This document shows, piece by piece, positions 10,785 to 58,024 of a stretch of DNA of 64,000 nucleotides. The translations under genes and the position numbers were made by a program. The notes under the pieces are model-generated. The model ran no database searches, had not been told where the DNA came from, and worked only from the letters and a program-made list of their open reading frames with translations. Source of the stretch: Hemileia vastatrix (lineage: Eukaryota; Basidiomycota; Pucciniomycetes; Pucciniales; Zaghouaniaceae); assembly GCA_030280995.1 (NCBI GenBank), contig JASXTE010000015.1, forward strand, positions 4,141,001 through 4,205,000, written 5' to 3'. Numbering within the stretch: the stretch's first letter is position 1; every line of letters begins with the position of its first letter.

Positions 10785-10815
<31 letters not shown>

Positions 10816-25032: not shown

Positions 25033-25035
25033 TAA

Positions 25036-29112: not shown

Positions 29113-29200
29113 AGGGGGTGTCAGTTCTGGCAAATCCACACTTAACTTAAGTGCGGATTTCAAACCAAATCAGCACTTACAAATCAGCACTTGAATTTTG
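29113..29200 (+). repeat. Element A left TIR and subterminal repeats
   Basis: AGGGGGTGTCAGTTCTGG, then AAATCCACACTTAA and TTAAGTGCGGATTT. Shorter copies of the GTGTCAGTT-TGA block recur at about 29227 and 29467, so the end appears duplicated internally. Confidence 0.7.
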
Positions 29201-30720
29201 AAAAAAAGTCACTTATTTCAAAAAAGGGTGTCAGTTATGACCTCAAATCAGCACTTTTTTCCCGTTTTTTTTCACAACCACATTTTGGCCACAAAACATC
29301 CCTTCCTTTCTTACCCCATCCCTGTCACATGTGACACACTGACCTTCCTCGCTACCTACCCATCAATCCTTGGCACACACCCCTTCCTGACATTTTCAAT
29401 ATTTTGACCAGGCATGTTTACATTCTTTTTTACTTATTTCTTCTACTTCTTAATCTTTTTTCTATGGGTGTCAGTTCTGACCTCAAATCAGCACTTTTTT
29501 TGTGATTTTTTTTTTCAAAACCACATGTTGGCCACATCATCCCTTTCTTTCCTATACCATTTTGTACTCTCCAAATGTCCTCTTTGTGTACTTCATTCAC
29601 TTGGGTTGGTATTTTGGTTTGTTGCATATTCATTTTTTTTGGAATTTACGGTGAAATTTTTTTTTTGGATGGCTCATTGGTTTTCTTTCACCAGCTCAAC
29701 ATGAAATCGCATATTTTCTGAAATCGCATATTTTGTCAGTGATTTTTTTTTTCATTCATCCCTCATATCCTTTTCCTATACTCCTCCAACATCCCTCAAA
29801 CAATTTGGTTTCATTCATTTTGTCATCTCATCTCTCCAGGTAAGTCACTTTATTCTTTTTTTTTAATTTTTTGATTACTAATTGTAATTTTTTTTTGTTT
29901 TTTTCTGTTTATTTTATTTTTTTTATCTAAATTTTTTTTGTAAGTGGTTATTTTGGATTTCAATGGTATAATTAACCTTTTTTTTCTCTCCCTCTTTACT
30001 TTCTTTTTTAGCTCCATCACCCTACTCTTCATCCCTCCTTGGCATGGTCATTATCCCCCCTTCCCTTATTTCACTTTTTTTTGGCTCCATTTCATTGAAA
30101 CACATACATTGCACATTCTTTATGCATTTCACTTACTCCATATTCAATTTCCCCACAATTCCAACATCAATCTTTCTCACTCTATTTTTCCTACTTTTCA
30201 ATCAAGGTAAGTTTCATCTCCTTTTTTTCATGCCTATATGATATCTCATTCCATTTATGAAAAGTTCATACTTAAATATATGTATGACTCTTATCTGGAT
30301 AACAGTGAACTTATAAAACTCCTTTTGATCTCATCTTCATTACCACTTTTCAAGTTTTTGTAAAATTTTGAAAATCAGACTTGGAATTAGGGTTAGGTTT
30401 ATTCAAATCTAATGTTCTTTTTACTGAAGATTCTCCTGAAGGCTACCTTTCATTTCCCACTAACAGATTTGAATTTGATTCAGTGGTTGCTGAGATATTG
30501 ACTGTTAAAGTTGAGCCTTTTTTTTCCCAATTTAAATTTTTATTTCATTTTTTTATGTAACAAATTAGGGTTAGGTTTATTTAAATCACATGTCCTTTAA
30601 CTGAAGATTCTACTAAAGAATATCTTTTATTTCCCACAAACAGGTTTGAATTAGGTTCAGTGGTTGCTGAGATTTTGACCTTTGAAGTTGAGCCTTTTTT
30701 CCAAATTTCACTTGTCTTAT
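29201..30720 (+). promoter_or_regulatory. 5' region of element A oxygenase gene
   Basis: T-rich and AT-rich sequence with no convincing coding frame. 29500-29860 resembles the reverse complement of 56100-56500 in element B. Near-duplicate blocks of about 130 bp (about 30385-30520 and 30567-30700) share 'ATTAGGGTTAGGTTTATT' and 'CAGTGGTTGCTGAGAT'. GGTAAG at about 30206 and other splice-like sites suggest leader introns, but the upstream exons seen in element B are not evident here. Confidence 0.45.
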
Positions 30721-30786
30721 TTCACATTTTTATATTGCATATTTAGAGGATAAGGATTCTGAAACTCTTATATGATTATTATCTAG

Positions 30787-31640
30787 GCATGTATCCGTTG
30801 CTCAAGAATATCACTAAAGCTCAAAAAGATGAAGATTTTTGCTTATGGGACACTCTACCTTCCTTTAACTCTTTTCTTGCTCTTCAACTCAAAAAGCACT
30901 GTAATAAAGCATTTGAAAAAAATCATGAACCTGCAACCAAAGTAGGAATACCAAATTGGTGTGACTCCGAATGGGAAGATATCAGCCATGAATATCTTTT
31001 ATTTTCTAATGTTATTATCACTCATTCTGGATTTCACAATAAAATTCACACCGATACCAAGGACACCAATTTTCTTACTTTTGGTATATTCTCATATATC
31101 AAACCGATTACTGGCCAACCAATACCATCTCCAGCTAAAATCAAATGACATGGTTTATATTTTCCAGACCACCGGTACATCATTGATTTTGGTTTGGGAA
31201 ATGGTATCATCGAAACTATTTGGAATTCTTCTAAGGATAATCATCAAACGACCAAAGCTCCTCCTGGTTTGGAATCCTGTCAAGATTTAACACATTTTGG
31301 TTGCTCATTTCAAATCAGTCATAAGTTGATTCAAAGAATCAATAAGGTAATGAAAGAAGGTAAAGTTAATTGATTTAAAAAAACTTTATTTAGATCCAAA
31401 AAGTATGGGGATTAGAGTTGTCATCAAAAATTTTATATTTTTCATAAATTTTTAATAAATATTTTTTATGTATCAATTTCCTCAACTAAAGTAATGGGCC
31501 CATGACCTTGTGTTGTATAAATGGTAATCATGATAACATTTATTTGTTTCATGGGGTTCCTCTAGCCTATACCTGTGGAAAGTCCCAAACTTTTGTTTCT
31601 AGATTTGATCTGCATTTTGGCTGAGGGATTGTCATTACTT
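30787..31640 (+). CDS. TET/JBP-like 2-oxoglutarate/Fe(II) oxygenase, partial, element A
   Basis: Such enzymes use Fe(II), oxygen and 2-oxoglutarate to oxidise substrates; TET/JBP members act on thymine or 5-methylcytosine. The first block (30789-31148) opens after a CTAG acceptor, 'LLKNITKAQKDEDF', and holds 'FSNVIITHSGFHNKIHTDTK', with the HxD iron ligands (HTD, His at 31047). A frameshift near 31150 leads to 'IDFGLGNGIIETIWNSSKD' and 'HFGCSFQISHKLIQRINK'. After a probable intron (about 31350-31490), 'NHDNIYLFHGVPLAYT' and 'QTFVSRFDL' supply the distal His and the Arg that grips 2-oxoglutarate. The N-terminal exons present in element B are missing, and a shift after 'LHFG' ends the frame. 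The fold call is from motif order, not a search. Probably a decaying copy. Confidence 0.6.
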
Positions 31641-31689
31641 TAAACTAGGGAAATTGATATATATTAGATATTTATTTAATAATTTATGT

Positions 31690-31915
31690 AATTATATTAA
31701 ATTTAGATGACTTCCACCACTTACTTCAATAAAATGCAGGGGGGGGGGTATTGCCAAATTTTCAAATCTGACATGTGAAATTGATGACTTAGAAAAATTT
31801 TGGTGATATCCACCCCTTGCTTCAATAAAATGCAGGGGAGAGTATTGCAAATTTTTTAAAACAGATATGGAATTTTTTTGACTTGTAAATATTTTGGTGA
31901 AAATTTTTGACGAGA
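31690..31915 (-). repeat. Element A copy of the ~105-bp tandem unit
   Basis: Two units containing 'CTTCAATAAAATGCAGGGG' (31721-31745 and 31820-31842). They match, inverted, the array at 52820-53165 in element B, which likewise lies just past the oxygenase gene. Confidence 0.7.
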
Positions 31916-31924
31916 ATGTGAAAG

Positions 31925-32550
31925 TAATTGTTTCAACCTTGAGCAGGTTTCTGGCTCAAAGGAATAGCAGTACCATCAACAAAACCAATACATCCTGGGA
32001 AGCCCTCTGCTTGCATAACCTGAGATGATTCAAGTTGCTCTTCTTTTGTTGGCCAGGTGAGAAGTTGAGATTACAAGGAGTTGATGGCAGTGATACATTG
32101 TTTGGTATAAGTGTTAACTGAACAATACCTTAAATCAAAGACATTTTCTAAACGTTTCAAAGCGGCTCCATTACCATTTGAACCCAAACAACATAGTGTG
32201 ATGGCCAATTGAATTGAAGGATGTCGTTGTTCTTTTTGAGAATTATTGTGAAATATGGAATGATCCTGAATAAGCTCAAGAAATTTAAGGAAACATTCCT
32301 GAGAAGTCCTGAACAGCTGTCTAAAAATGGGTGTAGATAGTTTAAGAAGTGTTTGGATGGTGTACTTGGGGGTATGAAGTACTTGAGGCTTTCTGGGAAG
32401 AAGGTTACTTTTCGTGGCCATTTTTGATAAAAAGACAAAATCTTCTTCTAGATCAGAATCAGAATTGCAATCAGAGTCCAAGAGCAGTTCAAGAGCCATG
32501 AAAGTCATTGCTTTATGTAATTTATCACGATTTGAAAGTGAGGAAGGCAT
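31925..32550 (-). pseudogene. PIF/Harbinger transposase, N-terminal half, element A
   Basis: The open part (32550-32071) has 'FRQLFRTSQECFLKFLELIQ', 'HPSIQLAITLCCLGSNGNGA' and 'YTKQCITAINSL', the N-terminal DNA-binding/dimerisation region of Harbinger transposases. After a stop it resumes 'LLTWPTKEEQLE', 'AEGFPGCIGFVDGTAIPL' with the first catalytic Asp, then 'SQKPA', where it joins the tandem repeat. Element B's transposase is clearly similar along the whole length. The second Asp and Glu regions are lost, so it cannot work. Confidence 0.82.
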
Positions 32551-32675
32551 AACTCTTATATGATATGATATGAAGATGTAATTGATGTACGATGTTTTGA
32601 GTTATGAAGTGTTATGCTGCGGAGTGCTGCGTATGAATGGGATGTTGCTGACAAATCAGTGAAATGGGACTTGAT

Positions 32676-32872
32676 GGTGAAATCAGCACTTTTGGTTGAG
32701 AAAGTGCGGATTTGAGTGAAATAAGTGACTTATTTCATTTTGAAATCCACCAGTATTGGGGCTAGTGTGTTTTGGAAATCCGCACTTATTTAAGTGCGGA
32801 TTTGGTCAAATTTAAGTGCGGATTTGTAAGTGCGGATTTGTAAGTGCGGATTTTCCAGAACTGACACCCCCT
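32676..32872 (-). repeat. Element A right TIR and subterminal AAGTGCGGATTT array
   Basis: AAGTGCGGATTT occurs at least six times, in both orientations, between 32703 and 32852. Four are clustered at 32801-32852, just inside the TIR. The left end has related sites at 29130-29195. Confidence 0.8.
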
Positions 32873-33655
32873 AATTGTTTCATTCTCACTTAGCATATTT
32901 TTATCATGTACTCTGAATTTTTGCATAAAATGAAATTTTCAAACAAATCAGTTGTAATTTTCAACAACATTTCAAATTGAATTTACTGAATCTCTCATTC
33001 AAGACAAAATTTATTTAGTATTAATGAAGCAATCACCAGCATATAGAAAGTAAACTTCATTTAATCTTTAAAAAAGTTACATGTTATGATGCTTATGTTA
33101 TTGGAAACTAAAGTATTCTAATAGTGAATCATAAAATGATGCAAAATTTTGTATCATGTTTTGAGATTTTTACACCCACTCTACTTTACTAAGTGAAGCG
33201 GCAATGCAACATTTTTCTTCACACTATTTAAGGAAAAGTAAAAACTTAGAGACTCTACAACAGGTAAAGTGAGGCAACATGTTTCTTTATGAAATTTATA
33301 CATAACTACATAGACTCAAATGCTGCATGATTTCAATTTAAAATGAGTATCTTTCAATTTCAATTATGTAGAAAATTTTTGGAATCTTTTAATTTTTATG
33401 ATTAGGCAACATCTGTAGAAAAAAATGTGTAGATCTTTTGCATCTGCAACAGCCTTGCACCTGGAAAAAATTTTCCCCATTCATTGACCCTGTAGTAACT
33501 TAAATGCAGAAGCTGAACTGAGATCTATATCACCCAATGCAGTACATTAATTTCATTTAATATCAAAAAGTGCTTATTGAGTATTCTATACATTTGGAAA
33601 TAAACAGGGTATTATTTTTTCATTTCTTGGATATGATGTTACCTAATTTCAAATT
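32873..33655. other. CACTA-like interior, AT-rich, no gene seen
   Basis: No open frame or recognisable element. Confidence 0.5.
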
Positions 33656-33659
33656 CTCT

Positions 33660-34595
33660 ATGCAGGCAAACATGAGGCAACATGTTGTCTCATGTTTTCC
33701 CACACATTCTCACTAAAGTAATAAAATACAGAATAGAATCTTAATTCTATGTTAGAATGAAAAAGTACATACATCATTTGCACCATCTCCTCATGACATG
33801 AGGCAGCACAAAGTTTCATGTCACCAGGACATGGTGCATTTGCAAAATGATGAGGATATGCCACCTCATCTTATGCTTTGTGGAAAAAAATTTAGGTATG
33901 CGGAAGGGTGGTTTCTTACATGCATATATGTATAAAAAAGGAATGTCATATTGGATACATGAGGCAACATGTCGCCTCATGTATCCAATATGAACAGCAT
34001 AGCAAAAAAAAAGGGCAAAAGATGAGGCGACATGTTGCCTCATCTTTTGCTTGTTGGTCAGTGGTGAGTAGCACATGCGCTAGTGCAAAACATGAGGCAA
34101 AACGTCATCTCATGTTTTGCATTAGCACATGTCTACTGTTCCTACAAGAAGGCCATTGGGTGGAACTAAGTTATTGCAAAAAGAGGTGACATTTAGCCTC
34201 ATGTTGCCTGGCTATCTGGTGCACATGACCAGATAATCAGCCAACATGAGGCATAATGTTGCCTTATGTTGCATTATGTCAGTGGTCACATGTAACATTA
34301 CTTGCAAGGGCATCAGGCATGGGCTAATGCAAAAAATGAGGTGCCATTTTGCCTTATTTTTTGCACTAGTACATGTGCTACTCACCACCAACCAACAAGC
34401 AAAATATGAGGCAACATGTTGCCTCATCTTTTGCCATTTTTTTTGCTATGCTGTTCATATTGGATACATGAGGCGACATGTCGCCTCATATATCCAATAT
34501 GATATTTTTTCTTATTCATGTATTCTATAATTTGAGGAAGTAAGAAAGTTGCTTAAATGCATATATGAGGCGACATGTTGCCTCATATATGCATT
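33660..34595. repeat. Array of palindromes GAGGCRACATGTYGCCTC
   Basis: About ten perfect or decayed copies of an 18-22-bp palindrome, usually flanked by AT on each side: for example near 33959, 34022, 34405, 34467 and 34567, with weaker copies near 33671, 34088, 34242 and 34334. Between them are shared linker words such as 'CAGTAGCACATG'-like and 'CATATTGGATACATGAGGC'. No protein is evident; open frames here are by-products of the repeats. Confidence 0.85.
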
Positions 34596-34600
34596 TTGGC

Positions 34601-36713: not shown

Positions 36714-36752
36714 AACCACTTGACTGCAAGTTGTCTAACTTTTGACCTGGTG
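36714..36752 (-). repeat. CACTA-like right TIR
   Basis: Reverse complement of 25036-25074 over 39 bp; TAA follows it. Confidence 0.85.
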
Positions 36753-39645: not shown

Positions 39646-42600
39646 ATGGTTTCGTCGTACAGAAAACGCAAACGTATCGCTGAATATCAGACAGAGAGCA
39701 GCGATCAAGATGCTCGCCTCTCAGTGATATTGAAAAGTTTGCGGCAGGCGCTTGGTGCCATAGAGTTTGCTCAAAGAGATGGGTCCAACGACACGCCCTC
39801 ACTGCCCAAGAAAATAACTCATGGCGGTCGTTCATCCGTCTCACGAGCTGCACTCTCGCCAGCGCAGGAAACCTTGGAGACTATAGCTGAATATATTGAA
39901 AACATCATATCCTGGATTAATACCGTGCGCATAAAATATTTTTCAAGTCATCATATCTGCTTGTTCACGTTTTGTTGCTTTAGAAAAATGATCAACAACA
40001 TTCTCAAGTAATCGCTACAGTAACAAATTTTTCAAATCTACTGCAGTCAGAAAGGATATTTCTCATTTAGTAAGACAACACAATTATGAGAACAACCTTC
40101 ATCGTTGAGATAAAATTCAAATGCTAAGAAAGATGTTGATAATAATATTTGTTTTTACTTAGCCAAAAATATTTCAATGTGCTTTTTACACCCAATGGAA
40201 AACTTACGAACAGTCGAACAATGTGGAATGACGGCTTATTGGGGTTCTTTTCCATAATTTTTCATTCTATATTGAATCTTTTTTGTGGGGAGGAAATTTA
40301 TTCATCACACAACGCCAGTAAAGGGCACACCAGCTTGCGATTCAAGAATGGGCGCGAGGAAGTGGGAATACTATTTGAAAAGTTACTTGCTGGATTTTTA
40401 ATAGGCATTCAGGTAAGCCGATTAACAGCCAAAATTTTATCTGCCTAGTTTTTAGAAAGAGAACTGATCGATATATCTCGGGGAATATATATTACGATAG
40501 AAATTTCTTCATCGCGAACCTTCTGATCCGGCTGCCGAGAAGATTTTCAAAAAACAGTTTGGAGCTATCTTTTTTCCTTTAGCACAAGAGCTGGATCGTT
40601 ATTCGAATCTTCATTATCGTCTGCGTCGTCTAGTAAGTCCTTATTATGAAGATATCATTTTGACTTCCTCTCAAATTTCAGGTCCTAAGAACAACTTTAA
40701 AAAAAATCCTAGTTATTTGAGACGGTTGAAATGATGATCCAAGGTGTAGATGAAAACAAAAATCTTCTTAGAGAAAAATATGGGTACTGGTTTTGTCAAC
40801 TTGTTTCTTTCTGTGATCTTATCTGCTTGCTAAGCTAAAATTCTTTTTAGTAATTTGATATCAAAGACGATAGGGTCTCAATCTGGTATTGATTATTAAG
40901 AAAGTGAATTTCCTTTGCTCACAAACTGATTAACTTCCTCGACGGTCAATAGATTACATCACCTCCAATGTTGCTTTGACAATCGCATTTAGTGTTACTC
41001 ATTCTGCGACAGAAAATCATAAGAAAGCAGAACTAGCGACGAGAACCAAACGTGCTGTGAACTTGATATCATCAACAAGCTTGGAGCCAGGGATCAGTAA
41101 TAAACTCATAGCCAGTCTTTCTGAAATGAGCAGTAAAGTTTTCTGGAACAAATTAGGAGGTTTCCAAACGATTATTGCAAGAGAAGATATTCAAAAGTAT
41201 GTGCAATTTTTACTAGCTTCCCAAGAGCCCATAAAAGAACAAATCAGTAATTAGTCAGCTAAAACTCTTTCTCCTGCTTATTGATTAATCCATTTTTATT
41301 TCATTTTCTTTGATCTATTTTTCTTCATGAAATTTGTTGTCTGTTTTTCTGAAATTTCAAACAAAGAGCACGATCTTTGGCTGTCATAGAAGGTAGTATG
41401 AATGGTACCCAATTTACTTGGTCTTCGGATGGCTCTCCATCATTCAACCGGTGTATGCAAATAAATCATCATAGTTTCACATGGATGTGTGAAAACCCTT
41501 TTGTTTGTCTATTTCAAGTTGATCTCTTTTTTCATTTCAATTTAAGAGCTCATTCTCTGCGGGGGTTTATCCTGAAACAATAGGATGAAATGTCGCCAGA
41601 GATGCCAGGCGAGACCGATTTTCTGGATGTCTTTGACTTGGAATTTTTCAAAGGTTTCAAGCAAGGCGGTAATTCAAATCTTCTCAAAAATTATAAATGT
41701 ATTTTCATTGCTTTCATTTTCACTTATCTGAAGATTTTTTTATTTTTATTTTTATTTTTATTTTTTTGTACAGCTGGCAATCTTCAATTTGATGCAGTAG
41801 CGATGAGTTTTAAAACGCAGGAGAATCCCTTTTTCAATGGTCCCTTTTCCACCAACTTGCAAAAATATGCGGCTAGTCCAAAAGAAAATCATATTTTGTT
41901 CATTTATAATGCAAGCTACGAGGAAACCATTATGAATTTGCTTCGAAATCGGCATTTAGTAAGTTAACATCAATATTCAGATTACTCAACCACAAACTGA
42001 ACTTTGGTGGTTTTTTTCTTAGAACCCCACCATTAAGCTCACAATCACTGTTCCAAGTACCGTTTCCAATGAACCTGCGGCTTTTAGCGTGGCAAGAGAG
42101 GGAAAACAAGTTGAAACGAACCCTTCTAAACACCAAAAGATAAGTGTAGGTAAAAACTCAATCACGAAACAGAATGTAACCGCTCAGTATCCCCTGAATT
42201 TAGAGAAGAAATATTCGAAACCAGAAGAAATGTTTTTTGCTCGAGCTGAAGCAGTCAAGCAAGCAGTTCGGAGTGATCAGCCCATGTCTTCGAAATCTGA
42301 GAATCACAAAACAGAATACAGCAAGGAGCTCGAAACTAATACACTTTTGGGCTCGGTAATCGATTTAACTTCCCCGCCAATTAAGCGAGACTGCATTTCT
42401 TCTATGAAGAAGGTAGAGCCTAAAGACAACACACTTAAAAAGGTATGATTTACAAAACGCATGAAATTTGCCATTTAGCCTGTTAAGCATAAAGCTTACT
42501 CATTTTTTCTATTCTCTAAACATATGGAATCCGTCTGCAAAACTACATGTTAAGGAAAACGCTAAGAGCAGAAGAGAAACAGAAAATAATCATTTCCCGT

Positions 42601-45040
42601 CGGTTTCCGATTCACCATCGCCTAAATTTAAATCCTACGCTGGCCCGCGCAAGAAAAATAAATTGAAAGCACAGCGAGCGAATGCTAGAAAGATGGTCAA
42701 AAATGATCGCGTGAGAGTCAAAACCTTGACTGAATCTGAGATTGAATCTTTTTCAGAAGAAGAACTGCAAGCTGGCAAGCATGACACTTCAAAGGAGAGC
42801 GAAACCTTACTTTTACCCGCGCAAATCAAAGTGCATGCAGATCAAAGACTGACGAAATCATATTTCTCAAAATCTTTGAATGAGGAGAACACAACTTTCG
42901 ATGTGCATGAAAAAAAACGGCCACAGAAGAAGGTTAATGGAAAGGAAGTGAAGGCGAAACAAAATAAAAATAATGTTCTAAGAGCTTACACTCCTGACGA
43001 AGAGTCCATTGCTTCAGATGATGTTGATGACATCAATACATTCTCCCCTCATCTAAAAGTAAGAAATAGAAAGGATGCCGGAAAGAAATTTAGTCCAGAA
43101 AAATGCTCATCGTCAACAAAAAATCAACCAGTATCTGTAAAGGACACCCTGTTTTCAAATGAGTCATTTTCCCTGTGTAAGCTTGCGCAAAAACTTAGTA
43201 GCGGTGGCACCAAAGAAACTGGTAAGACCAAAATAACTACTCACAAACCCTTTGAAAGTCATGAGAGTGGCTCTTCTGGCTCTCCAATCGACCTTGATTC
43301 AGATTACCTCCCTTCTGATATTTCTGTCAACGAAAAGGCTATGGCAAAAATGGGACGAAAAAACTCTAAGTCTAAACCGCTTCATTTGGGTCCACTACTT
43401 TCAGAATCAATTTTGGAGAAGAAAACTGTTATGAATGGGGTCAAATATCAGAGAAATTCTAGATTGAAAAAAATAAATCCAAGGGAAAATGTGGAAGGTG
43501 AAGTAAGCGGCAAGAATATTAGCTTCAAAAGTTGTGTTCCTTCAAAGATGACGGAACTCCTATCATCTAGTGATAAGGAAACAATCTCAGGCCCTGCCAT
43601 GAAAATGGATCACAATTTACGAATCCGCCATACTTCTAGTCCGAATCTCAAGCACAAACATCATCATCATGGACTCACCGAGAGCCCTCAAGTCAGTAGT
43701 ATTTCCGATTCTGAAGATGTGCAGATAGCTGGTATGCAAGATAGTTATTTTCTTGAGAAAGAGGCAGTTCCTTCTTTCATCAGTTCGAAAAAAGAACTGG
43801 GATTACAAAAATATAAACGTAAAGATTGGCAAAACTCTGTGCAGAATGCACATATTAAGACTGGGTTAGTCAAAGAGAACAACAGCTATGAATCACTATC
43901 CGCTCATGCATCAAGCATGTCGGGTAGTGATCAGGAAGGCGAAAACCTGTTGAAAAAACTAATAAATACATCCAAAAATGAATTAAAGCCGGATACTATT
44001 GATGCTATTTTTGAAGCCTTGGAGGCATATTCTGAGAAAGGCCAAGAGGGAAAAGTGGCGAATTCAAAAATTTCAAGAGAAAAAATTGGCGTTAAGTATT
44101 TTCCTGCGGAAAATTTGAAAGAAGAGGTAGAAGTAAGCAGTGAGCTTTTACTTTTGAGCAATTTGATTCCTTGATTAAATAATCTTTCGATTTTTCTATG
44201 AGGAATTATAGAAGTCAATATCTAGGCAAAGTATAAATTGTGTACCGGGAAACTCAAAACCAGCCATTACTGCTCATTCTCCCAAATTTATTAAAGGCTT
44301 CACCAATCAGAATTCGACCCGCGATAATTACTTGAATCTCCCAACCCAAAGAAAGAAACTTCAGTTTCTAGACAAAACTTTAACGTCAACGAATAGCAGG
44401 TCTAGAGGTCAAACTGAAACTCCAATCACACGTAGAAAAAATACGAAACGTGGTGATAATCATCTCAAGAGGAAAAAGGTTGAGTTTTCAAGTGATAGCA
44501 GTGATGAAGAAATACATAAGAGGTCTGTTAAACAGGTCGATAAAGATATTTCCCCAGATCTAAGCCAGATTTTACAAAAACTTCATGATGTAAGTCAATA
44601 GGCCCAAGCTTAATTTGTTTTTAAGTTTTCAAATTTTCCCCATTCAATTTTTTTGAACATCCTCTGTTTGAACCAGCTGCTTGTTAATGCCATAGGAGAC
44701 AAGAAGAAAGGAAAAGCTGATGCGGCGAGCCAAAGTGCGATTAACTTGGTTAGACAAGCACGACTTTGGATGCAAAAAGAGATGGAAGACACGTTAGTTT
44801 CTTAGAATATGTTCCTATTTTAAGTTGCTATATTTAACTAAATGTGATGCTATAATAACCCCTAGTCAGACGACAAAGATGATAATTGATGATTCTAACA
44901 AAGAATATCATGAAGAGTTGAATCAATTGGTCAATTCCATTTCAAAACTTCGAGAGGAGCTATACGTTAAAGACAAGCTACTACGTAAGAAAATTCGCCA
45001 TTCAACAAAAGAATCACCACCCCACTCTCTTTTCCAATAG
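39646..45040 (+). CDS. Multi-exon gene of unknown function, SIM-like motifs, coiled-coil tail
   Basis: I do not recognise this protein. From 40.9 kb the exons fit in phase except one junction: block to 41196; 41367 to about 41450 (3' edge unresolved); about 41584-41668; 41774-41958; 42023-42442; 42555-44132; 44212-44589; 44677-44792; 44866-45040. The first ATG (39646, MVSSYRKRKRIAEYQTESSD) begins an open exon to about 39911, but junctions between 39.9 and 40.95 kb are not resolved. The middle has a folded-looking block ('DFLDVFDLEFFKGFKQ', 'NHILFIYNASYEETIMNLL'), then ~700 charged, Ser/Lys-rich, disordered residues. 'GSVIDLTSPP' and 'SPIDLDSDYLPSD' resemble SUMO-interacting motifs. The C-terminus is predicted coiled coil ('NQLVNSISKLREELYVKDKL'). 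Basic/acidic disorder suggests a nuclear scaffold-type protein. Intact open frames imply a living gene in a repeat-filled setting. Confidence 0.62.
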
Positions 45041-45884: not shown

Positions 45885-45965
45885 ATCCCCTGGCTCATCA
45901 TCATCACCAGATCCATCTCCTGGATCATCATCATCACCAGATCCATCCCCTGGCTCATTATCATC
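45885..45965 (+). repeat. ~30-bp tandem repeat
   Basis: Three units of 'ATCATCACCAGATCCATC' followed by CCCTGGCTC or TCCTGGATC. Confidence 0.75.
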
Positions 45966-46079
45966 GGTTATATCTCCTAATTCATCAATCATCACCAGCA
46001 CACCCCCAGTTTGTTATCAGTGTCAGCTACATCTGCCGACTCACCGGCTAGAACACCCCTGGTTTACTGGCAGTGAATG

Positions 46080-47252: not shown

Positions 47253-48601
47253 CCTCCTTGCTGTCAATAATATCCAGCAAACCAATTTTCTTGGTAAATT
47301 TGGTGAATTTTTCTCTACTTAGTGATTTCGTAAATATGTCTGCAACCGTATCCGTGGTGGGGATGTATCTAATATCAATTTTGCCATTATTAATTTGTTC
47401 CCTGATCTAATGAAATTGAATTTCGATATGTTTTGTTCTTGCATGAAAAATGGGATTTTTACACAGCGCAATACTACCTTGATTATCCGAGAAAAGAACT
47501 GACAATGTATTTTGATCATATCCAAGATCAATGAGCAAATTTTGCATCCAAATTGCTTCTTGACTTGCATCGACTGTAGCTTTACTTTCAGCTTCAGAAG
47601 TACTAAGGGCAACAGTTGGTTGCTTTTTACAACGCCAACTAACTGCTGTCCCATTTATAGTAAATACATATCCAGTTGTTGATTGATGTGTTTCACAACA
47701 TCCTGCCCAGTCGGCATCAGCAAAAACATCAGGTAGTGAATTGCTGTAATTTCCATTATCAGAGAAAACATCAAAGCCTTTGAAATTCAATGAAACATTA
47801 ATTGTACCCTTTAAATAGTGCAAGACTCTTTTGAACGCAATCCAGTGTTTGATTCCCGGTGCGTTCAGAAATTGTGCTAGTTGACTATTGACAAAGACAA
47901 TATCAGGTTGAGTTCCTTGAGTAATATAATTTAGTCTTCCAACAGCTTGTTGATAATTGATGTTCAATTTAGAGAATTCTTCAATTTCATATTTTGTCAC
48001 TTTTTCTAGTTGTGTGTTCATCATCATAGGCATTGAGATTGGCTTACAGTCAGTCATTTCATAAGATTGTAGTAGGTCTCTAATTTCTTGATCTTGACAA
48101 AGTGAAATGATTTTTGCTCCCTGATCTCTGGTAACTCGCATCAACCAAGTCATCCATTTCAAAATGTGCTTTGATTGCTTCCTTGAACCATGTGATTTCT
48201 TTTCCAAAAATGGTGAGATCATCAACATGAACATGAACATAGCATGGATTGGTTTCACTTTCATGAATGAACAAACAGGGGTCTGCCAACAAAGGATGAA
48301 AATTTATCGAGTAGAAAAAATTTAATAATTCATTATACCAACAGCGTAATGCTTGTTTCAGACCATAGAGTGACCGTTTGAGTAAAAGCACAGGGTTGTT
48401 GAAATTGGCAGGTTTCTTCATGCTTAAGGGAAAATTCATGTAAACTTCTTCTTCTGGTTTGCCATGAAGGAAAGCTCCTTTGACATCCATCTGAGCAAAT
48501 TCCCAATCTTCACTATTTTCTAGACTGATTAGTACACAAAGCGTGGTGAAAATGTGGAAATAATTTACACCAGAGACCAAAAATCTGTGCACTTGTTGCA
48601 C
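47253..48601 (-). pseudogene. Ty1/copia pol 3' part: RT and RNase H
   Basis: Reverse transcriptase: 'SGVNYFHIF', 'FAQMDVKGAFLHGKPEEEVY', 'LLLKRSLYGLKQALRCWY' and 'YVHVHVDDLTIFG' (VDD active site, about 48240). A frameshift near 48100 leads to 'INYQQAVGRLNYITQGTQPD', 'FADADWAGCCETHQSTTGYV', 'ALSTSEAESKATVDASQEAI' and 'LFSDNQGSIALCKNPIFHAR', the RNase H with its DED residues. The tail 'DTVADIFTKSLSREKF' and 'GLLDI' is in another frame (47400-47255). Gag, protease, integrase and the 5' LTR are absent: the frame is lost at about 48601, near a small MITE. Inactive. Confidence 0.88.
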
Positions 48602-48631
48602 ATAAAATCAGCAATAATACACCACACAATA

Positions 48632-48867: not shown

Positions 48868-48879
48868 ATATTGCGTAGT

Positions 48880-49650: not shown

Positions 49651-50881
49651 TCAAGTGAAAAAACTTCAGATATCATAGTTTCTACATATTTATAGGATAA
49701 TATTGTTCTTTTCAAATAATAAATTAATGGAATTTTCCTTTTAATTTTATTACATAAGATTGAGGTATTGTTGAACCCCATGTGCCAAATGCACCTTGAA
49801 TAATGCTATACTTTTAGATCACAATACTTAAAGGATATTTGAAAGTTAATTATATTTATAAAATTTTTAGACAATTTTATTCTTGAATTTGATTTTCTCT
49901 TGTGGCTTAATGATAAATTTTAAATAATAATTGTGGACTGGAATATGCTTTCCATTATATTATTAATGTTTGAGGTAGTTGTATTTAATTTTCGAAATGC
50001 ATCATGTAAATTTTCCACCTTTAATAATAATAATTTAATGAAATGAAATTTTAAAATAAAGTATTAATATTTCAACTCATTTAAAAAGAAACTGTGGTAT
50101 CTGGATAGACATAGTGAAAGATGTCCTTCTGAGAAATGGCAGATTCAGAGGAAGAAACTCCTACAATGAATATAAGTGAAGATACGAGTCTGTGAACCAT
50201 AGGTAGTTAAAATGTCAAAAGTGTCCCTCTCAGAAATCAACAGTTTATCAGATGAACACTTTAGATATTGTTCAAGAAGATGAAATAAGGATTTCTGATG
50301 GTCAGGGTATCTAATTTTTGGTTAACTATAAAATTGAAGGTGTCACAAACTTGGTCAAAGGTTTCCACTTGAAAAACAGTCCAAATTTGAAAATGAAATA
50401 TTTATAACTCCTTAAAGATAAACTAGTATAAATGTAATACCTAAACTATATGCATTATAAAAGTGTGCTTCTCAAAATCAGACTGTCCTTCAAGTGGACA
50501 CTTTTTACCAAGTCTGTAACACCATTAATTTGATTTTCATCCAATTTTTAAGTACCAAGGCTAGTAAAAGAGATTGTTTCATATTTGGTACCTAAAGAAT
50601 CAACCCAAATTACAATCCATTTCCAGGAAGGACATTTTATAATTTAATAAAATACACTGATTACATATAGTACTTAGATGATGTGCATTATAAAGGTGTC
50701 CTTCTCAGTGACAGACCATTGTTCAAGTGGAAACTTTTGAGAAATTCTGAAGTACTCATATTTTCATTTTTAATCAAAAAAAAAACTATGTCCATCATAG
50801 AAGATAATTCTATCTGGTTACAAATTACTCACCTAAATGATGGTCTTATGCTGAGATGGACACTTTTATAATGGATATCAT
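49651..50881. repeat. AT-rich region with degenerate subrepeats
   Basis: Recurring words such as 'GTCCTTCTCAGTGA', 'CAAGTGGAAACTTTT' and 'AAGTGGACACTTTT' occur about every 110-130 bp (for example 50110, 50219, 50461, 50490, 50697). Similar words follow the other R copy at 59150-59700. No gene. Confidence 0.55.
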
Positions 50882-51249
50882 AGGGGGTATCAATGTTGAC
50901 TGATCCGTAATTAAATTAATTGTTGAAAATAATCTGCATTCCCCAATTATCTTCCGCAATCATTTTTGCTAATAATTGGGTTATTAGACACTTTACGTGT
51001 CAATGTTCACCTCTTATCCGACATTTTTTTACTCAATTTTTCATAACCACATCTTGGACAACTTTCTGTCATAACCACATCTTGACCTACTTTCTGCCAT
51101 AACCACATCTTGGACTACTCTCTGGATATTCCTTCTACCTTGCTTCACACTCACATTCTCATCCCATCCTGTACAATCTATCTGCTCAGAACCCCTCACC
51201 ATCTCATCTGCTTGTTTCTGCTCCTTTTCATCTTCATTTATATTTTAAC
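50882..51249 (+). promoter_or_regulatory. Element B left TIR and upstream region of the Myb-like gene
   Basis: After the TIR, 51025-51120 has three copies of 'CATAACCACATCTTG', related to 'CACAACCACATTTTGGCCAC' near the left end of element A. A pyrimidine-rich stretch precedes the ATG at 51250. Confidence 0.6.
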
Positions 51250-52653
51250 ATGCCTTGTCGTCCTAGATCTTCTCAAAGGCAGCCATCATCCAGTTGTTCT
51301 TCAAATCCCACTACTCCCTCTTTCCCCCGCTCAGCCAAGAAATCTAAGACCATTCAATTAAAAAAAGATGATCATCTCATTCTTATCAACTGGCTGAAAA
51401 TCAAATCTAACTATGATTCTTGTTTTGGTACTGAGTATTCAACTAAAGTAGGACGGCCCCCAGCATCAAAAGTTAATGGCTATCTTTTAATGGCAAATGA
51501 GTTACGGAATAAGACCAAGGGAAGGATTGATCTTTTGCCTAAACAGATGTCTGAACGCTTCAAGCATTACCAAGCCAAATACAAGAAGGCAAAGGCTCTT
51601 TCATCTTCCACTGGTTTTGGGGTTACTGACATTGATATAATTAAGGGTATCAAATCCATAGACGATAAACTTGAATATTTATTTCCTTACTTTAAAGAGA
51701 TGGATGCAATTTTTGGAGAGCAAGCTGATGTTAATCCTGTAAACATGTTGGATGGAGAAGATCCTATCTCCGAACATGATGTTGAAGCAAATCTTTTCCC
51801 ATCCTCTTCCTCCACTCAAGCCTCCCCTCATTTGAATGAGACAAATCTAGATAGCTTTTCTGTAGATCCTATTGGTGATTTAACACAACCAAATCTAACT
51901 CAGGTCTGTTTCTTTTTTCTTTTATCTTATCATTTATATTTTTTATTTACTTATCTTTTTCTTATTTCTTAAAAGGCTGACAAACAAACCCAGGATCCTC
52001 AATCAACTAAGTCTGAAGGTAGTGACAATGATGAGGAGGAAAATATGACCTTGAACAAGAAGCATAGGGCTTCATGTAGTCTAAATTTCCACTCAGAAAG
52101 AAGACAAAAAAGTGATACTTCATCACAAACCCCTTTTTTGTCTATGGAAAATTTTTTAGAGAAACGTGATGCTGGTAAGTGATACCATACCTCTTATTAC
52201 TTTACTCTACTTTTCTTCTACTTTATAACAATTTTTATTACCACTCTAGAACAAGTAGAAATTTCTAAAGAGACTCTAAGCTTTGAAAAGAAGAAATACG
52301 AGCTCTCTTTAAGGAGGGATGATAGACTACAAGATTTGGAAGAGAGGAAGTACAAGCTCTCTTTACGGAAGGATGATTGGGCCCAAGATTTGGAGGAGAG
52401 GAAGTATGAGCTCTCTTTACAGAAGGATGGTCGGGCCCAAGATTTGGAGGAGAAGAAGTTTGAGTTAACTCTAAGTATTGAAAAATCAAAAAAAGAGGAG
52501 AAAACACTTGAACATCAAAACCTATTAGAGCAGATGAAATATAAGTTTGATCATGAAGAACATTCTAAAAAGAAAGATTTCTTGATAGAATGTGTTAAAT
52601 CTAATAAATCTGTTGAGGAAATTGAACATTTAAAGAAATTGTTGGATGACTAG
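51250..52653 (+). CDS. Myb/SANT-like DNA-binding protein, element B
   Basis: Three exons fit in phase (51250-51903, 51976-52174, 52250-52653) and give an intact 418-residue protein. The N-terminus is Ser/Pro-rich and basic. Residues ~40-140 resemble the Myb/SANT or trihelix-like fold ('LKKDDHLILINWLKIKSNY', 'KVGRPPASKVNGYLLMANEL', 'QMSERFKHYQAKYKKAK'). The C-terminal exon has about four repeats of ~20 residues ('RKYELSLRKDDWAQDLEE'), reflecting 60-bp DNA repeats, and is strongly helical/coiled coil. PIF/Harbinger elements normally encode such a second protein, which helps bring the transposase to the nucleus and the ends. The plus-strand gene begins 370 bp inside the left TIR. Element A lacks it. 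Confidence 0.75.
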
Positions 52654-52819
52654 TTTGTTTTATTTCTCTCACACTTCAACTGTTCATATTTATTTGTACA
52701 TAAAATTTACTATAATTTCCTGTATTTCATTACTCTATCAATCATTACTTGAATTTTCGTATTTTAATGTTAAATATTCTTTTTTTAAATAAAATTTTCA
52801 TGTCTCCTTTGAAAATTTG

Positions 52820-53165
52820 ACGATCCCCCACCCCTGGATTTTTTTTAAGTAAGGGGTGGGTATCACCAAAATTCTTCAAAATTCTTACATGTCAAGAATT
52901 TCACAAGTCTTATAAGAAATTTTGGCAAAACCCCCCATGGATTTTATTGAAGTAAGGGACGGGTATCACCAAAAAATTTTCACCAAAATATTTACAAGTC
53001 AAAAAAATTCTATATCTGTTTTAAAAAATTGGCAATACTCTCCCCTGCATTTTGTTGAAGCAAGGGGTGGGTATCACCAAAATTTTTCTAAGTCATCAAT
53101 TTCACATGTCAGATTTGAAAATTTGGCAATCCCCCCCCTGCATTTTATTGAAGTAAGGGGTGGAA
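52820..53165 (+). repeat. ~105-bp tandem array beside the oxygenase gene
   Basis: Four units, each with a core like 'CCCCTGCATTTTATTGAAGT' followed by AAGGGGTGGG and 'TATCACCAAAA'. The core is a weak hairpin (CCCC...GGGG). Inverted copies lie at 31690-31915 in element A. Confidence 0.8.
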
Positions 53166-53166
53166 G

Positions 53167-54832
53167 TCATCTAAATTTAATATAATTACATAAATTAGTA
53201 AATAAATATCTAATATATATCAATTTCCCTAGTTTAAAGTAATGACAATTCCTCAAGCCAAAATGCAGATCAAATCTAGAAACAAAAGTTTGGGACTTTC
53301 CACAGGTATAGGCTAGAGGAACCCCATGAAACAAATAAATGTTATCATGATTACCTGTTATACAACCAAAGGTCATTGGCTCATCACTTTACTTGAGCAA
53401 ATTGATATATAAAAAATATTTATTAAAAATTTATGAAAAAATATAAATTTTTTGATGACAACTCTAATCCCCATACTTTTTGGATCTAGATATAGTTTTT
53501 TTAAATCAATTAACTTTACCTTCTTTCTTTACCTTGTTGATTCTTTGAATCAACTTATGACTGATTTGAAATGAGCAACCAAAATGTGTTAAATCTTGAC
53601 AGGATTCCAAACCAGGAGGGGCTTTGGTCGTTTGATGATTATCCTTAGAAGAATTCCAAATAGTTTCGATGATACCATTTCCCAAACCAAAATCAATGAT
53701 GCACCGGTGGTCTGGAGAATATAAACCATGTCATTTGATTTTAGCTGGAGATGGTATTGGTTGGCCAGTTATCAGATTGATATATGAGAATATACCAAAA
53801 GTAAGAAAATTGGCATCATTCCTATCAATATGAATCCTTTTGTGGAATCCAGAATGAGTGATAATAACATTAGAAAATAAAAGATATTTGTGGCTGATAT
53901 TTTCCCATTTGGAGTCACACCAATTTGGTATTCCAACTTTGGTTGCAAGTTCATGAATTTTTTCAAATGCTTTATTACATAGCTTTTTGAGTCAAAGAGC
54001 AAGAAAAGAGTTAAAGGAAGGTAGAGTGTCCCATAAGCCAAAATCTTCATCTTTTTGAGCTTTAGTGATATTCTTGAGCAATGAATATATTCCTATATAA
54101 AGAAATAAGTGAAATGATATTAAGAATGGAAAAAAAATATTAGACATACCAAGAGAATATCCTTTATCAAAACCTGGTCTCCAACCAAATCCAATCATGA
54201 TACCACCCAACAAATTTGTAGTCCTTATAGGTAATCAAACCAAAGCCATTTGATAAAGAGTTATGATAAGATCCAATAGTTGATTAAAAGATTCATCTTT
54301 TACACCATCAAATGAATGAGCTTCCAAAATGATTTGAGCCTTATAAGTATTACTGATAACTGAAACAACTCAATCATCACCAAATTTGGTTAGATATTTG
54401 ATATCTTCTGGTGATTTTTTCAGATATTAATTTTTTTATCTACTTTAGTTTTATGAAAAAAATGTTTGGGATATGACAAAAATAACTTTCACAGAGAATT
54501 TTTTTTTCAGATATCTTTTCTTCTGATAAAACTGATTATCTTTAATTTTTTTTGATGATTTAGATGATGAATTTTTTTCCCAGATATCTTTTCTTCTGAT
54601 GAGACTGATTATCTTTAATTTTTTTGGATGATTTAGAAGAAGAATTTTTCTTTTTCAGATATCTTTTATTCTGATGAGACTGATTATCATTAATTTTTTT
54701 TGATGAATTAGAAGATGATTGTATTGAAGTTGATTTTGAAGAAGATGATAGAGATGATAAAGATGAAGATGATAAAGAGGATAAAGATGAAGATGATAGA
54801 GAAGTAAGGGGTGAATCTGAAGAAGAAGACAT
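53167..54832 (-). pseudogene. TET/JBP-like 2-oxoglutarate/Fe(II) oxygenase, element B
   Basis: The N-terminus (54832) is Ser-rich ('MSSSSDSPLTSLSSSSLSSL'), then basic repeats of 'SSKKIKDNQSHQKKRYL'. Through stops and shifts follow 'PEDIKYLTKFGDD', 'AQIILEAHSFDGVKDES', 'LLGGIMIGFGWRPGFDKGYS', an intron (about 54145-54095), 'LLKNITKAQKDEDFGLWDTL', and 'FSNVIITHSGFHKRIHIDRN' with the HxD ligands (HID, about 53825). 'IDFGLGNGIIETIWNSSKD' and 'HFGCSFQISHKLIQRINK' precede a second intron. The last exon (to 53167) has 'NHDNIYLFHGVPLAYT' and 'QTFVSRFDL' with distal His and Arg. Catalytic ligands match element A, so selection acted before decay. Several stops fall at probable Trp codons (TGG to TGA). 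Length would be near 500 residues. A fold search should confirm TET/JBP against other 2OG oxygenases. Confidence 0.62.
54500..54725 (-). repeat. ~75-bp tandem repeat in oxygenase N-terminus
   Basis: About three units coding 'SSKKIKDNQSHQKKRYLKKK'-like basic segments; possibly a nuclear-localising or DNA-binding tail. Confidence 0.7.
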
Positions 54833-56382
54833 TTATTTGATCTGAAAAAAATTTAAATGTCAAAAAAAAATTCAACACATATTTTTTAAAAAAAAACTCA
54901 CGTAATAATATCTTTTAAAAAAAATATAAAGCAATATCCTTTTTAAAAAAAAAAAAAAAATTTAAAAATTTTCAGTAAAAATTATTTCAAAAAAAAAATA
55001 CAAAAGAAAACCTGAAGTTTGGTTATAAAAAACCTTCACAGAAAATCCTGTCAAAATAATAATAAAAAAAAAAAAAATCTGTAAAAGAAAAATCAGAACA
55101 AATAAAATTAAAAAAAAATTAATTCAGTAAAATTATTTGTAAGAAAAATTAAAAATTAGTATCTAAACCTTTTTTGTTTTGTAATTTACAGGGAAAGACC
55201 TTAACAGAAATTAATATTTCTTTTTTCTAAAATTTTGCCAAAAAAAAAAAAAAAATACATTTTAGTATGTTTTTTAAAAAATAGGTAACCCCTCTTTAAC
55301 TCCCATAACAGTCCCCTTTCCCCCCATTTCTTACTCTGAAATTACCTCCAAAATCCCTCCCTCCTTGCCTCAAAACCACCCTCAAATCCCCTCCTTTCCT
55401 GTCTCAAAATCCCCCCTTTCCCCCCTCCTTAATTGTCACAACCCCCCCAAACTTTTCCCATTTCACCCCTCCCCCTCTTTAGCCGCTTCAAACCCCTCCC
55501 CTTTAGCCACCTCTACCCCCCCTCCTTCTTAATGAACAATTGCAAACGATTGTTTGTTAAGAAGGAGGGGGGGGGGGTAGAGGTGGCTAAAGGGAAGGGG
55601 AAGCGGGGGAGGGGACCTAAAAGGGGGGAAGGGGGGTTTTGAGATGGGTAAAGAGAGGAGAAGGGGGGAGAGCTGAGGTGCCTAAAGAGAGGGGAAGGGG
55701 GGGGTGATGAGGCGCCTAAAGAGAGGGGAAGGGGGGGTCTTGAGGCACCTAAAGAGGGGGGAAAGGGGGGATTTGGGACAGGCAAGGAGGGTGAAATAAG
55801 GGGGTGTTGAGGAAGGTAAAGAGAGGGGAGAAGGAATAACTTGAGGCAGGTAAAGAGAGAGGAAAAGGGGTGAAATGAGGCAGCTAAAGAGGGTGAAGGA
55901 GAGAAAAAAAAAGAAAAAAGAAGAGAAAAAAGAGAGAAAAAAAAAGTTAGTCTAGCCTTGAAAATAAAAAAAAGGACTTACAAAAAAAAAAAAAAAAACA
56001 AAAACAAAAAAAAAACCAAAAAAAAAAAACAAAAACAAAATAAAGCAAAATAAAAAAATTCATGATTAGCAAATAAAAAACAAGAAAAATGAAAAAAAGA
56101 CTTACCTGGTGAGATGAGTTGAGAAAATAAAAGTAACAAAAATATTTGAGTGATATTTGAGGAGAGGATGAAAAGGATATGAGTTATGAATGAAAAAAAA
56201 AAAATCACTGACAAAATATGTGATTTCATGTTGAGCTGGTGAAAGAAAACCAATGAGCCATCCAAAAAAAAGATCTTCACTGTAAATTCCAAAAAAAAAA
56301 AAATGAATATGCAACAAACCAAAATACCAAACCAAGTGAATGAAGTACACAAAGAGGACATTTGGAGAGTAAAAAAAATAAT
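54833..56382. other. A-rich then strand-skewed C/G-rich spacer of element B
   Basis: 54840-55290 is A-rich. 55300-55535 is C-rich and 55555-55890 G-rich, forming an imperfect inverted repeat centred near 55543. The inner arms 55498-55540 and 55550-55600 are nearly complementary ('CCACCTCTACCCCCCCTCC' against 'GGAGGGGGGGGGGGTAGAGG'). From 55610 the unit 'CCTAAAGAGAGGGGAAGGGG' repeats about six times. 56100-56380 resembles 29500-29860 of element A, inverted. No gene. Confidence 0.65.
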
Positions 56383-57585
56383 TTAAAAGGGTGGTGAAGA
56401 GAAATGTTGGAGAGTAATAGGCATAATGACAGAGCGTATGCTGGTTGAATGAATGTTTTGTGATTCAAGGGTGGGGAGAGCCGGTGCTGGTTCAGGATTC
56501 TCTTCTTCATAAAGATCATTCCACTCATCCTTTAAATCAGCTAGGATATTGTGCAGTATAATTCAAGTCATGATGCAATGATTTGCAGTTTTGATCTCCA
56601 ATTTTTTTTGAAATTAGATTCTGAGCTCCCGAAGACTAGAAAATCGTCCCTTTAAAATACCTATAGCATGTTCAATTTGTACTCTTGATTGGGCAAGGTG
56701 ATAATTAAAGGCAGTTTTGGGGTCATTTTCTAAGGTTGCACCACAGAAAGCAGGTATAATGTACTTCCCACTTGCATATGCTGAGTCTGCAAGGAGGTAC
56801 TGAGATTCGTCAAAGTATGAGTCAGGGGTTTGAGAAATCCTCATTCTTTGGAAGACAGAAGAGTCATGACATGAGCCAGGGCAGCCACTATGAAAAGCAA
56901 TAAATTTTTTATTGACATTGCATAAATGTTGAACGGCAATAGAGTATCTAGAAAGAAGATAAAAAGTTAGTTTATGAAGGATGAGAAATTGGAGAAGATT
57001 TTGAAGAAACCTTTTTTTTCAATCAAAATAATGGTTGACATTATGAGCAGGCTTTTGACTCAAAGGTATAGTTGTGCCATCAACAAATCCTACATAGCCA
57101 GGGAAACCTTCAGCTTGAATCATATGAGAGTATTCAAGTCGCTGATCTGGAGTTGGCCAAGAAAGTGTTTGAGACTTGAGGGAAAGGATAGCAATCATAC
57201 AGAGCTTGGTGTATAATATCACGGTACCATATCCTATGTTAAAGAGATTATCTAAACTTCTTACAGCAGCACCGTTTCCATTTGAGCCAAAGTGACATAG
57301 TGCAACAGCAAGTTGGATGGCAGGATTACGCTGTTTGTTATGGGAATTGTTATGAAAGATAGGATGATTGGAGATGAGTTGATAAAGTTTGAAGAAAGAA
57401 TTGGGAGAAGTTCTAAAAAGTTGGGTGAAGTTTAAATGAGGAATGTTGAGAATGGAGGCCAGATCATATCGGGGATCATGATAAAGATTTGGCCCCCTGG
57501 TGATGATGTAATGCTTTTTGGAAAGAAAACACATATAAGCTAAAGCATCTTCCAAATCAGAGTCAGATTTATAGTAAAGAACTAA
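56383..57585 (-). pseudogene. PIF/Harbinger (DDE_4) transposase, element B
   Basis: Open from about 57585: 'YYKSDSDLEDALAYM', 'LFRTSPNSFFKLYQLISNHP', 'FGSNGNGAAVRSLDNLFNIG', and 'EGFPGYVGFVDGTTIPLSQK' with the first catalytic Asp. A TGA (57021) interrupts 'NHYFD-KKRYS', where relatives have Arg; an intron (57010-56948) follows in phase. Exon 2 has 'FHSGCPGSCHDSSVF', 'LLADSAYASGKYI' (second Asp) and 'QSRVQIEHAIGILKGRF' (Glu). Past a TAA and a TGA the tail 'IILHNILADLKDEWNDLYEE' runs to 56383. An in-frame reading continues upstream to about 57700 with one TAG, so the true start is unclear. The enzyme would cut the element ends with a 3-bp stagger. Three or four point stops, otherwise well kept. 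Confidence 0.85.
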
Positions 57586-57908
57586 AAAAAAGTAATAGAA
57601 TTCATTGTTGATTGAAGTAGCTTCCTAGTATAGAGGTGTTTCATTGTTGCTGGTGGAAGGGTTATGTGATGAGGGAAGTGGGAATTCACCACCAAATGTG
57701 CAGTTGGGGTGTGTAGATAGAAAAAAAACTTAAGTGTTCGCCACAAAAATTAAGTAGCATAGAGTGAGGAAAGACTTAAGGATGGAATCAGCAATTATGA
57801 GTCATGTGACTTTCTTGCAAATCCATCATGGATGAGATGAGTTTTGGATCAGGAATTAGAAATGGAAATTGGGGTATAAGAGGCGGGATAATGCATTATC
57901 GTGGATTC

Positions 57909-57940
57909 CTTATCCACTAGCCCCGGGGCTAGTGGATAAG
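57909..57940. repeat. 32-bp perfect palindrome
   Basis: CTTATCCACTAGCCCC followed at once by its exact reverse complement; 84 bp inside the right end of element B. Confidence 0.95.
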
Positions 57941-58024
57941 AATCTTCCACAATTAATAATGTCTGATCCCGGAAAAAAAAATTCCTGATCCCTAATTGTG
58001 GATCCCTGAACATTGATACCCCCT

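What the first reader, a model, noticed from the sequence alone, without database searches (positions are those of the whole stretch)
29113..58024. PIF/Harbinger transposons that carry a TET/JBP-like 2OG-Fe(II) oxygenase
Seen: two separate elements (29113-32872 and 50882-58024), each closed by AGGGGGT inverted repeats and a 3-bp duplication (AAT, CAT), each holding a DDE_4 transposase and a gene with HxD (HTD/HID), distal H and R in the right order. Known: fungal TET/JBP genes have been described travelling with KDZ-type DNA transposons. Inference: here the partner is Harbinger-type, so the oxygenase may have been captured independently, and it could oxidise methylated bases on the transposon or on its target.
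Basis: partly seen in the sequence, partly recalled or inferred. Interest (0 to 1): 0.9.

Follow-up and report, generated by a model that had tools for sequence, protein, structure and literature searches.

The report
Dead rust Harbinger transposons with TET-like genes
Two broken jumping genes in what looks like a rust fungus genome each carry remains of a TET-like enzyme gene, a pairing already described in 2025, but here nearly the same enzyme gene sits in two clearly different jumping-gene families, so it seems to have been swapped between them.

Summary
Two elements (e1 29113-32872, e2 50882-58024) have matching terminal inverted repeats and perfect 3-bp duplications. Each holds remains of a PF20515 "Tet-like 2OG-Fe(II) oxygenase" gene and of a Harbinger-type transposase. 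e2 has a DDE_Tnp_4 match; e1 has only the N-terminal part of a related transposase. Oxygenases and transposases are all broken.

The headline idea is published: Kojima 2025 (PMC12730594) reports Harbinger transposons carrying TET/JBP genes in six rust species.

Two things add to the text I read. (1) The oxygenase core is 94.9% identical between e1 and e2 over 1,127 aligned bases, while the transposases are 47% identical over 130 aa and about 1.35 changes per site apart; the gene lies in opposite orientation relative to the transposase, and both copies share an in-frame stop. This fits recent, passive exchange of a TET cassette between two old Harbinger families. (2) Both elements fit 3-bp duplications; the published group (PHISTA) is defined by TA, which e2 does not show. 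A Myb/SANT-like accessory protein is possible, unproven.

Verdict: real, known in kind, a modest variant.

The parts
29113..32872 (.). element e1, 3,760 bp, non-autonomous remnant
   Evidence: TIR 24/25 matches, 3-bp duplication AAT
29110..29112 (.). left target-site duplication AAT of e1
32873..32875 (.). right target-site duplication AAT of e1
29113..29137 (+). left TIR of e1
32848..32872 (-). right TIR of e1
29560..30009 (+). 5' block of the TET cassette in e1 (possible promoter/5' UTR, by inference)
   Evidence: 88.1% identical to e2 over 430 aligned bases (76.8% counting gaps)
30779..31908 (+). core of the TET cassette in e1 (oxygenase core and 3' part)
   Evidence: 94.9% identical to e2 54100-52972 over 1,127 aligned bases
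30747..31148 (+). oxygenase piece 1 of e1, HTD at 31047-31055, ends at an in-frame TGA
   Evidence: PF20515 profile 59-159, E 2.3e-15
31149..31373 (+). oxygenase piece 2 of e1, likely distal His at 31242-31244
   Evidence: PF20515 profile 177-211, E 1.9e-7
31699..31900 (+). two units of a ~100-bp repeat at the 3' end of the cassette in e1
31921..32601 (-). N-terminal part of a Harbinger-type transposase in e1, with an in-frame stop, cut short where the TET cassette ends
   Evidence: 51.9% over 181 aa to e2's N-terminal piece; 47% over 130 aa; 68% over 44 aa
50882..58024 (.). element e2, 7,143 bp
   Evidence: TIR 22/25 matches, 3-bp duplication CAT
50879..50881 (.). left target-site duplication CAT of e2
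58025..58027 (.). right target-site duplication CAT of e2
50882..50906 (+). left TIR of e2
58000..58024 (-). right TIR of e2
51250..52653 (+). third gene of e2: possible Myb/SANT-like protein (first open piece 51250-51972; second, repetitive piece 52183-52653; introns inferred)
   Evidence: relatives P0002 and P0003 of the first piece; sub-threshold Myb_DNA-bind_4 in 3 of 3; fold inconclusive
52831..53178 (-). ~100-bp repeat units at the 3' end of the cassette in e2
52972..54100 (-). core of the TET cassette in e2
53506..54234 (-). oxygenase pieces of e2 (53992-54234; 53731-53991 with HID at 53832-53824; 53506-53730), broken by in-frame stops
   Evidence: PF20515 E 0.024, 6.6e-9, 1.1e-6
54560..54832 (-). 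Ser/Lys-rich open frame upstream of the oxygenase in e2, possible N-terminal exon
   Evidence: open frame only; no e1 counterpart
55914..56376 (-). 5' block of the TET cassette in e2
56614..57624 (-). Harbinger-type transposase of e2 in two open pieces (57019-57624, 56614-57018), interrupted by an in-frame stop
   Evidence: DDE_Tnp_4 E 2.3e-19 in the second piece; 47 relatives of the first

Best explanation
Both elements are decayed PIF/Harbinger-type DNA transposons of a rust-like fungus that carry a TET/JBP-like oxygenase gene as cargo. The likely working form, inferred from the published group, is a cut-and-paste element whose transposase acts on the AGGGGGT ends (perhaps with the third, Myb/SANT-like protein) and whose oxygenase oxidises 5-methylcytosine on the element or its target, so that the element escapes methylation-based silencing or mutation. 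Shown here: ends, duplications, PF20515 and DDE matches, broken genes, and the mismatch in age between oxygenase and transposase. Inferred: that the oxygenase gene with its 5' and 3' noncoding parts is a cassette exchanged between two old Harbinger families after they split, probably by passive recombination (in e1 it abuts a transposase that lacks its second half); and the anti-silencing function.
For: Oxygenase: of 4 e1 frames scanned 2 match PF20515, both above the cut-off; of 6 e2 frames 3 match, 2 above it (the others were another frame of the same stretch or flanking pieces). Transposase: DDE_Tnp_4 and 47 relatives, 24 of A. psidii, 3 of P. striiformis, 1 of Podila, 19 environmental. Ends and duplications. 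Exchange: cassette core 94.9% identical (57 mismatches in 1,127), 5' block 88.1%, best transposase stretch 71.7% over 374 bases; transposase protein 47% over 130 aa; tree path 1.35 changes per column, sister grouping weak (64/56); opposite orientation relative to the transposase. Same in-frame TGA in both copies. e1's transposase homology ends at 31921, the cassette at 31908. CpG observed/expected 0.26 and 0.20, against 0.72 in the LYS2-like region and 0.73 in an unassigned coding-like region. Precedent: PMC12730594.
Against: Only two copies, both broken. The similarity could come from gene conversion between inherited TET genes, with an inversion in one element. Low CpG is also seen in other repeats of the window (LINE 0.25, copia 0.37, gypsy 0.40), so the elements show no sign of having escaped it. 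Identity in the core is uneven (86% in the bin at 30979-31078 holding HTD, 99% at 31179-31278). The tree warns that e1 and e2 are long branches and that its bootstrap had not settled. No relative of the oxygenase was found, though the short query limited that search.
Confidence: 0.72

Rival explanations
1. Gene conversion: both Harbinger families inherited a TET gene from a TET-bearing ancestor, one family inverted it, and the core was later homogenised by conversion inside one genome.
For: The 5' block is less similar (88.1%) than the core (94.9%), and identity within the core is uneven. Both copies lie in one window about 18 kb apart.
Against: The 5' noncoding block at 88.1% is still far closer than the transposase coding region (71.7% in its best stretch), so this part too looks younger than the transposase split. 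The orientation differs.
Confidence: 0.3
2. Chance nesting: the oxygenase belongs to a third transposon that inserted into both Harbinger elements.
For: The cassette core has sharp edges, and e1's transposase is cut short at one of them.
Against: No inverted repeats or duplications are evident by eye at the edges aligned (not tested systematically); the two cassettes differ in length (about 2.3 and 3.4 kb). The paper also found no ends of their own on rust TET genes (PMC12730594, sections 23 and 25).
Confidence: 0.1
3. The elements are ordinary PHISTA elements (TA duplications), and the 3-bp duplications are coincidence or decay.
For: e1 also fits TA/TA; the published TET+ Harbinger elements carry a transposase, a TET gene and a third gene, as e2 does.
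Against: e2 reads TA/TC under that model while CAT/CAT is perfect; both elements match 3 bp.
Confidence: 0.25
4. The oxygenase is a 2OG enzyme of the PF20515 family that does not act on DNA bases.
For: The Tet-like name rests on the profile; no solved relative was found by sequence; the 2OG-binding Arg is not assigned here.
Against: [quoted passage not shown] That the window's copies are PU-type is my inference.
Confidence: 0.15

Closest known systems
TET+ Harbinger / PHISTA transposons of rust fungi (Kojima 2025, PMC12730594)
   Same: Harbinger-type transposase, TET/JBP gene and a third gene between terminal repeats, in Pucciniales
   Different: Both elements here fit 3-bp duplications and e2 does not fit TA; the third gene may be Myb/SANT-like (unproven); near-identical TET cassette in two diverged families and in opposite orientations
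Canonical PIF/Harbinger and Nuwa transposons
   Same: DDE_Tnp_4 transposase, 3-bp duplication, second gene possibly Myb/SANT-like
   Different: Described in PMC12730594 section 14 as encoding transposase and Myb/SANT protein (Nuwa), with no oxygenase mentioned
KDZ (Kyakuja, Dileera, Zisupton) transposons with TET/JBP genes
   Same: DNA transposon carrying a TET/JBP gene in basidiomycetes
   Different: Different transposase; the rust Dileera element described gives 8-bp duplications
PF20515 2OG-FeII_Oxy_6, Tet-like 2OG-Fe(II) oxygenase superfamily
   Same: Profile matches above the cut-off, with HxD and a downstream His
   Different: Copies here are broken by in-frame stops; e1 lacks the N-terminal part of the profile

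Membership tests
PF20515 Tet-like 2OG-Fe(II) oxygenase | profile match above the curated cut-off of 27 bits | tested here: met
   57.6 and 31.7 bits in e1; 36.5 and 29.2 bits in e2; a third e2 piece 15.1, below
PF20515 Tet-like 2OG-Fe(II) oxygenase | HxD metal-binding motif | tested here: met
   HTD 31047-31055, HID 53832-53824 minus
PF20515 Tet-like 2OG-Fe(II) oxygenase | distal His and 2OG-binding Arg | tested here: inconclusive
   A His (31242-31244) lies inside the profile match; the Arg could not be assigned without an alignment to a solved relative
PF20515 Tet-like 2OG-Fe(II) oxygenase | activity on methylated bases | not testable with these tools
   No activity data; both copies broken
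TET/JBP PU type (Kojima) | PU-type conserved residues and place in the PU tree | not tested
PIF/Harbinger superfamily | DDE_Tnp_4-type transposase | tested here: met
   e2 56614-57018 E 2.3e-19. e1 has only a homologous N-terminal part
PIF/Harbinger superfamily | 3-bp target-site duplication | tested here: met
   AAT/AAT and CAT/CAT, 2 of 2; two copies only
[quoted passage not shown]
   Myb_DNA-bind_4 below the cut-off in 3 of 3: E 0.0018, 0.29, 0.088; model mean pLDDT 53.7; no useful fold match
PHISTA | TA target-site duplication | tested here: not met
   e1 TA/TA possible, e2 TA/TC
PHISTA | transposase groups with PHISTA families | not tested
   No PHISTA sequences at hand; the tree held P. 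striiformis and A. psidii proteins of unknown family

The most novel reading that the evidence does not exclude
In rust fungi a TET/JBP gene, with its own 5' region and 3' repeat, circulates as a discrete cassette between Harbinger families that make 3-bp duplications and have a Myb/SANT-like partner. The exchange between e1 and e2 was recent and need not have been selected for function, since the shared copy seems to have carried a stop already. At 95% this pair is closer than the one pair above 70% (about 80%) that the paper gives for TET genes of different transposons; the comparison is not like for like, since that pair crosses superfamilies and the paper calls Puccinia PHISTA families very similar to one another.
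Probability: 0.4. Interest if true: 0.55.

Novelty: new variant of a known kind. Interest (0 to 1): 0.38.

Why it matters
If rust transposons exchange a DNA-demethylating gene as a cassette, that would be an arms race between transposons and genome silencing whose weapon moves separately from the transposase. A 95% identical pair in two diverged families lets the breakpoints be read closely. It also suggests that TET carriage is not confined to the TA-duplicating Harbinger group.

Tried and rejected

Whole-genome search: not completed in 12 tries.

Full report
What was checked. The finding names two elements. I read both, listed open frames, compared the elements with each other and the window, scanned open pieces against Pfam, searched proteins, built a transposase tree, predicted one structure and read parts of the relevant paper.

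Ends. AGGGGGT alone occurs 10 times in the window against 5.8 expected, and 8 of 100 shuffles had as many. What makes the two elements real is the longer inverted repeat (24 of 25 and 22 of 25 matching) and the identical 3-bp flank (AAT, CAT). Of the 4 convergent pairs at 500-10,000 bp only these two have either property. The left ends of e1 and e2 share AGGGGGT(G/A)TCA and then diverge.

Oxygenase. In e1, 30747-31148 matches PF20515 positions 59-159 (E 2.3e-15) and 31149-31373 matches 177-211 (E 1.9e-7). In e2, 53731-53991 matches 85-159 (E 6.6e-9), 53506-53730 matches 179-211 (E 1.1e-6) and 53992-54234 matches 32-81 below the cut-off (E 0.024). Counting everything given to Pfam from these stretches, 2 of 4 e1 frames and 3 of 6 e2 frames match, 4 of them above the cut-off; the others were another frame of the same stretch or flanking pieces. 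HTD and HID are in place. The in-frame TGA at 31146-31148 lies between profile positions 159 and 177, so inside the domain, and the e2 copy has the same TGA. Splicing it out would probably remove matched residues, so that is unlikely but not excluded. e2 has at least one further in-frame stop, at the end of 53992-54234. e1 shows no counterpart of e2's upstream pieces.

Transposase. e2 has a DDE_Tnp_4 match in its second piece. e1 has a related N-terminal part, 47% over 130 aa and 68% over 44 aa, whose homology ends at 31921, next to the end of the oxygenase cassette at 31908. e1 therefore cannot make a whole transposase, and e2's is interrupted by an in-frame stop. Of 47 relatives of e2's first piece, 24 are from A. 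psidii, 3 from P. striiformis, 1 from Podila, and 19 are environmental.

Cassette. The core 30779-31908 equals 54100-52972 at 94.9% (57 mismatches in 1,127 aligned bases), including noncoding sequence and a ~100-bp repeat. A 5' block (29560-30009 against 56376-55914) is 88.1% identical over 430 aligned bases; BLAST, counting gaps, gives 76.8%. The best transposase stretch is 71.7% over 374 bases. The tree gives a path of 1.35 changes per column between the two transposases; they join with only 64/56 support, the tree warns of long branches, and its bootstrap had not settled. In e1 the oxygenase runs opposite to the transposase, in e2 along with it. The simplest reading is exchange of the cassette between families after they split. 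Conversion of two inherited genes plus an inversion is the main rival. That both copies carry the same stop suggests that the shared ancestor was already broken, so the exchange need not have been selected. Independent mutation at the same place cannot be excluded.

Third gene. The open frame from 51250 has two environmental relatives (58% and 55% identity; 2 hits among 171 candidates). All three proteins give Myb_DNA-bind_4 as the only Pfam hit, below the cut-off (E 0.0018, 0.29, 0.088). The predicted model has three helices within residues 37-116 but low confidence, and fold searches were uninformative. I call it Myb/SANT-like as a guess. The paper's third proteins, said to lack Myb/SANT, could be the same kind; I could not compare them.

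Methylation context. CpG observed/expected is 0.26 in e1 and 0.20 in e2, 0.72 in the LYS2-like region, 0.73 in the coding-like region 40934-44601 (a part of it, 42465-44174, had no Pfam match), and 0.25-0.40 in three retroelement regions. This fits methylation-linked decay of repeats in general. It gives no sign that these elements escaped it.

Comparison with the literature. Kojima 2025 (PMC12730594; I read the abstract, sections 5, 10, 23 and 34, part 1 of 2 of section 24, and found passages; not the figures or supplements) reports TET/JBP genes in seven transposon lineages of rusts. These include 15 Harbinger families with TA duplications in five Puccinia species and A. psidii, with a third protein said to lack Myb/SANT. 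It proposes escape from silencing and passive transfer of the gene, with no signature at its ends. [quoted passage not shown] The finding's main claim is therefore known. Against that text, e2's 3-bp duplication, the possible Myb/SANT-like partner and the 95% shared cassette between diverged families are additions. In the listings (20 of 184 shown; 14 of 15 shown) I saw no other paper on TET genes in Harbinger elements; the library holds open-licence papers only, and the 2014 PNAS paper on fungal TET/JBP expansion (recalled) was not held.

Scores. Real feature, known kind, modest variant: interest 0.38.

Noticed in passing
window 29113-29560: The start of e1's left end (GGGTGTCAGTT) recurs at about 29226 and 29466; the stretches from these two are 83.5% alike over about 97 aligned bases, so the left terminus looks duplicated.
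   Followed up: partly
window 30979-31078: Within the 95% identical oxygenase core, the 100-bp bin holding the HxD motif is only 86% identical, the lowest of all bins.
   Followed up: no
window 31420-31711 and 53166-53459: A fold-back pair (arms about 80 bp, 79% alike in e1) flanks the last open piece of the oxygenase region in both elements; it could be a small inserted element.
   Followed up: no
window 30385-30733: 177-bp tandem duplication upstream of the e1 oxygenase core, where e2 has other sequence including possible N-terminal exons.
   Followed up: no
window 55569-55891: G-rich minisatellite with a 34-bp unit inside e2, between the 5' block and the oxygenase.
   Followed up: no
window 4768-11363: A LYS2-like gene (name recalled; phosphopantetheine and NAD-binding reductase domains in 7649-9763) next to a 4'-phosphopantetheinyl transferase-like gene on the other strand (10473-11363); in yeast, from recall, such a transferase activates LYS2.
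   Followed up: partly
window 16338-20335, 23881-25152, 47407-48607: Gypsy-like (reverse transcriptase match), LINE-like (endonuclease match) and copia-like (by eye, no Pfam match) retroelements, all CpG-poor.
   Followed up: partly
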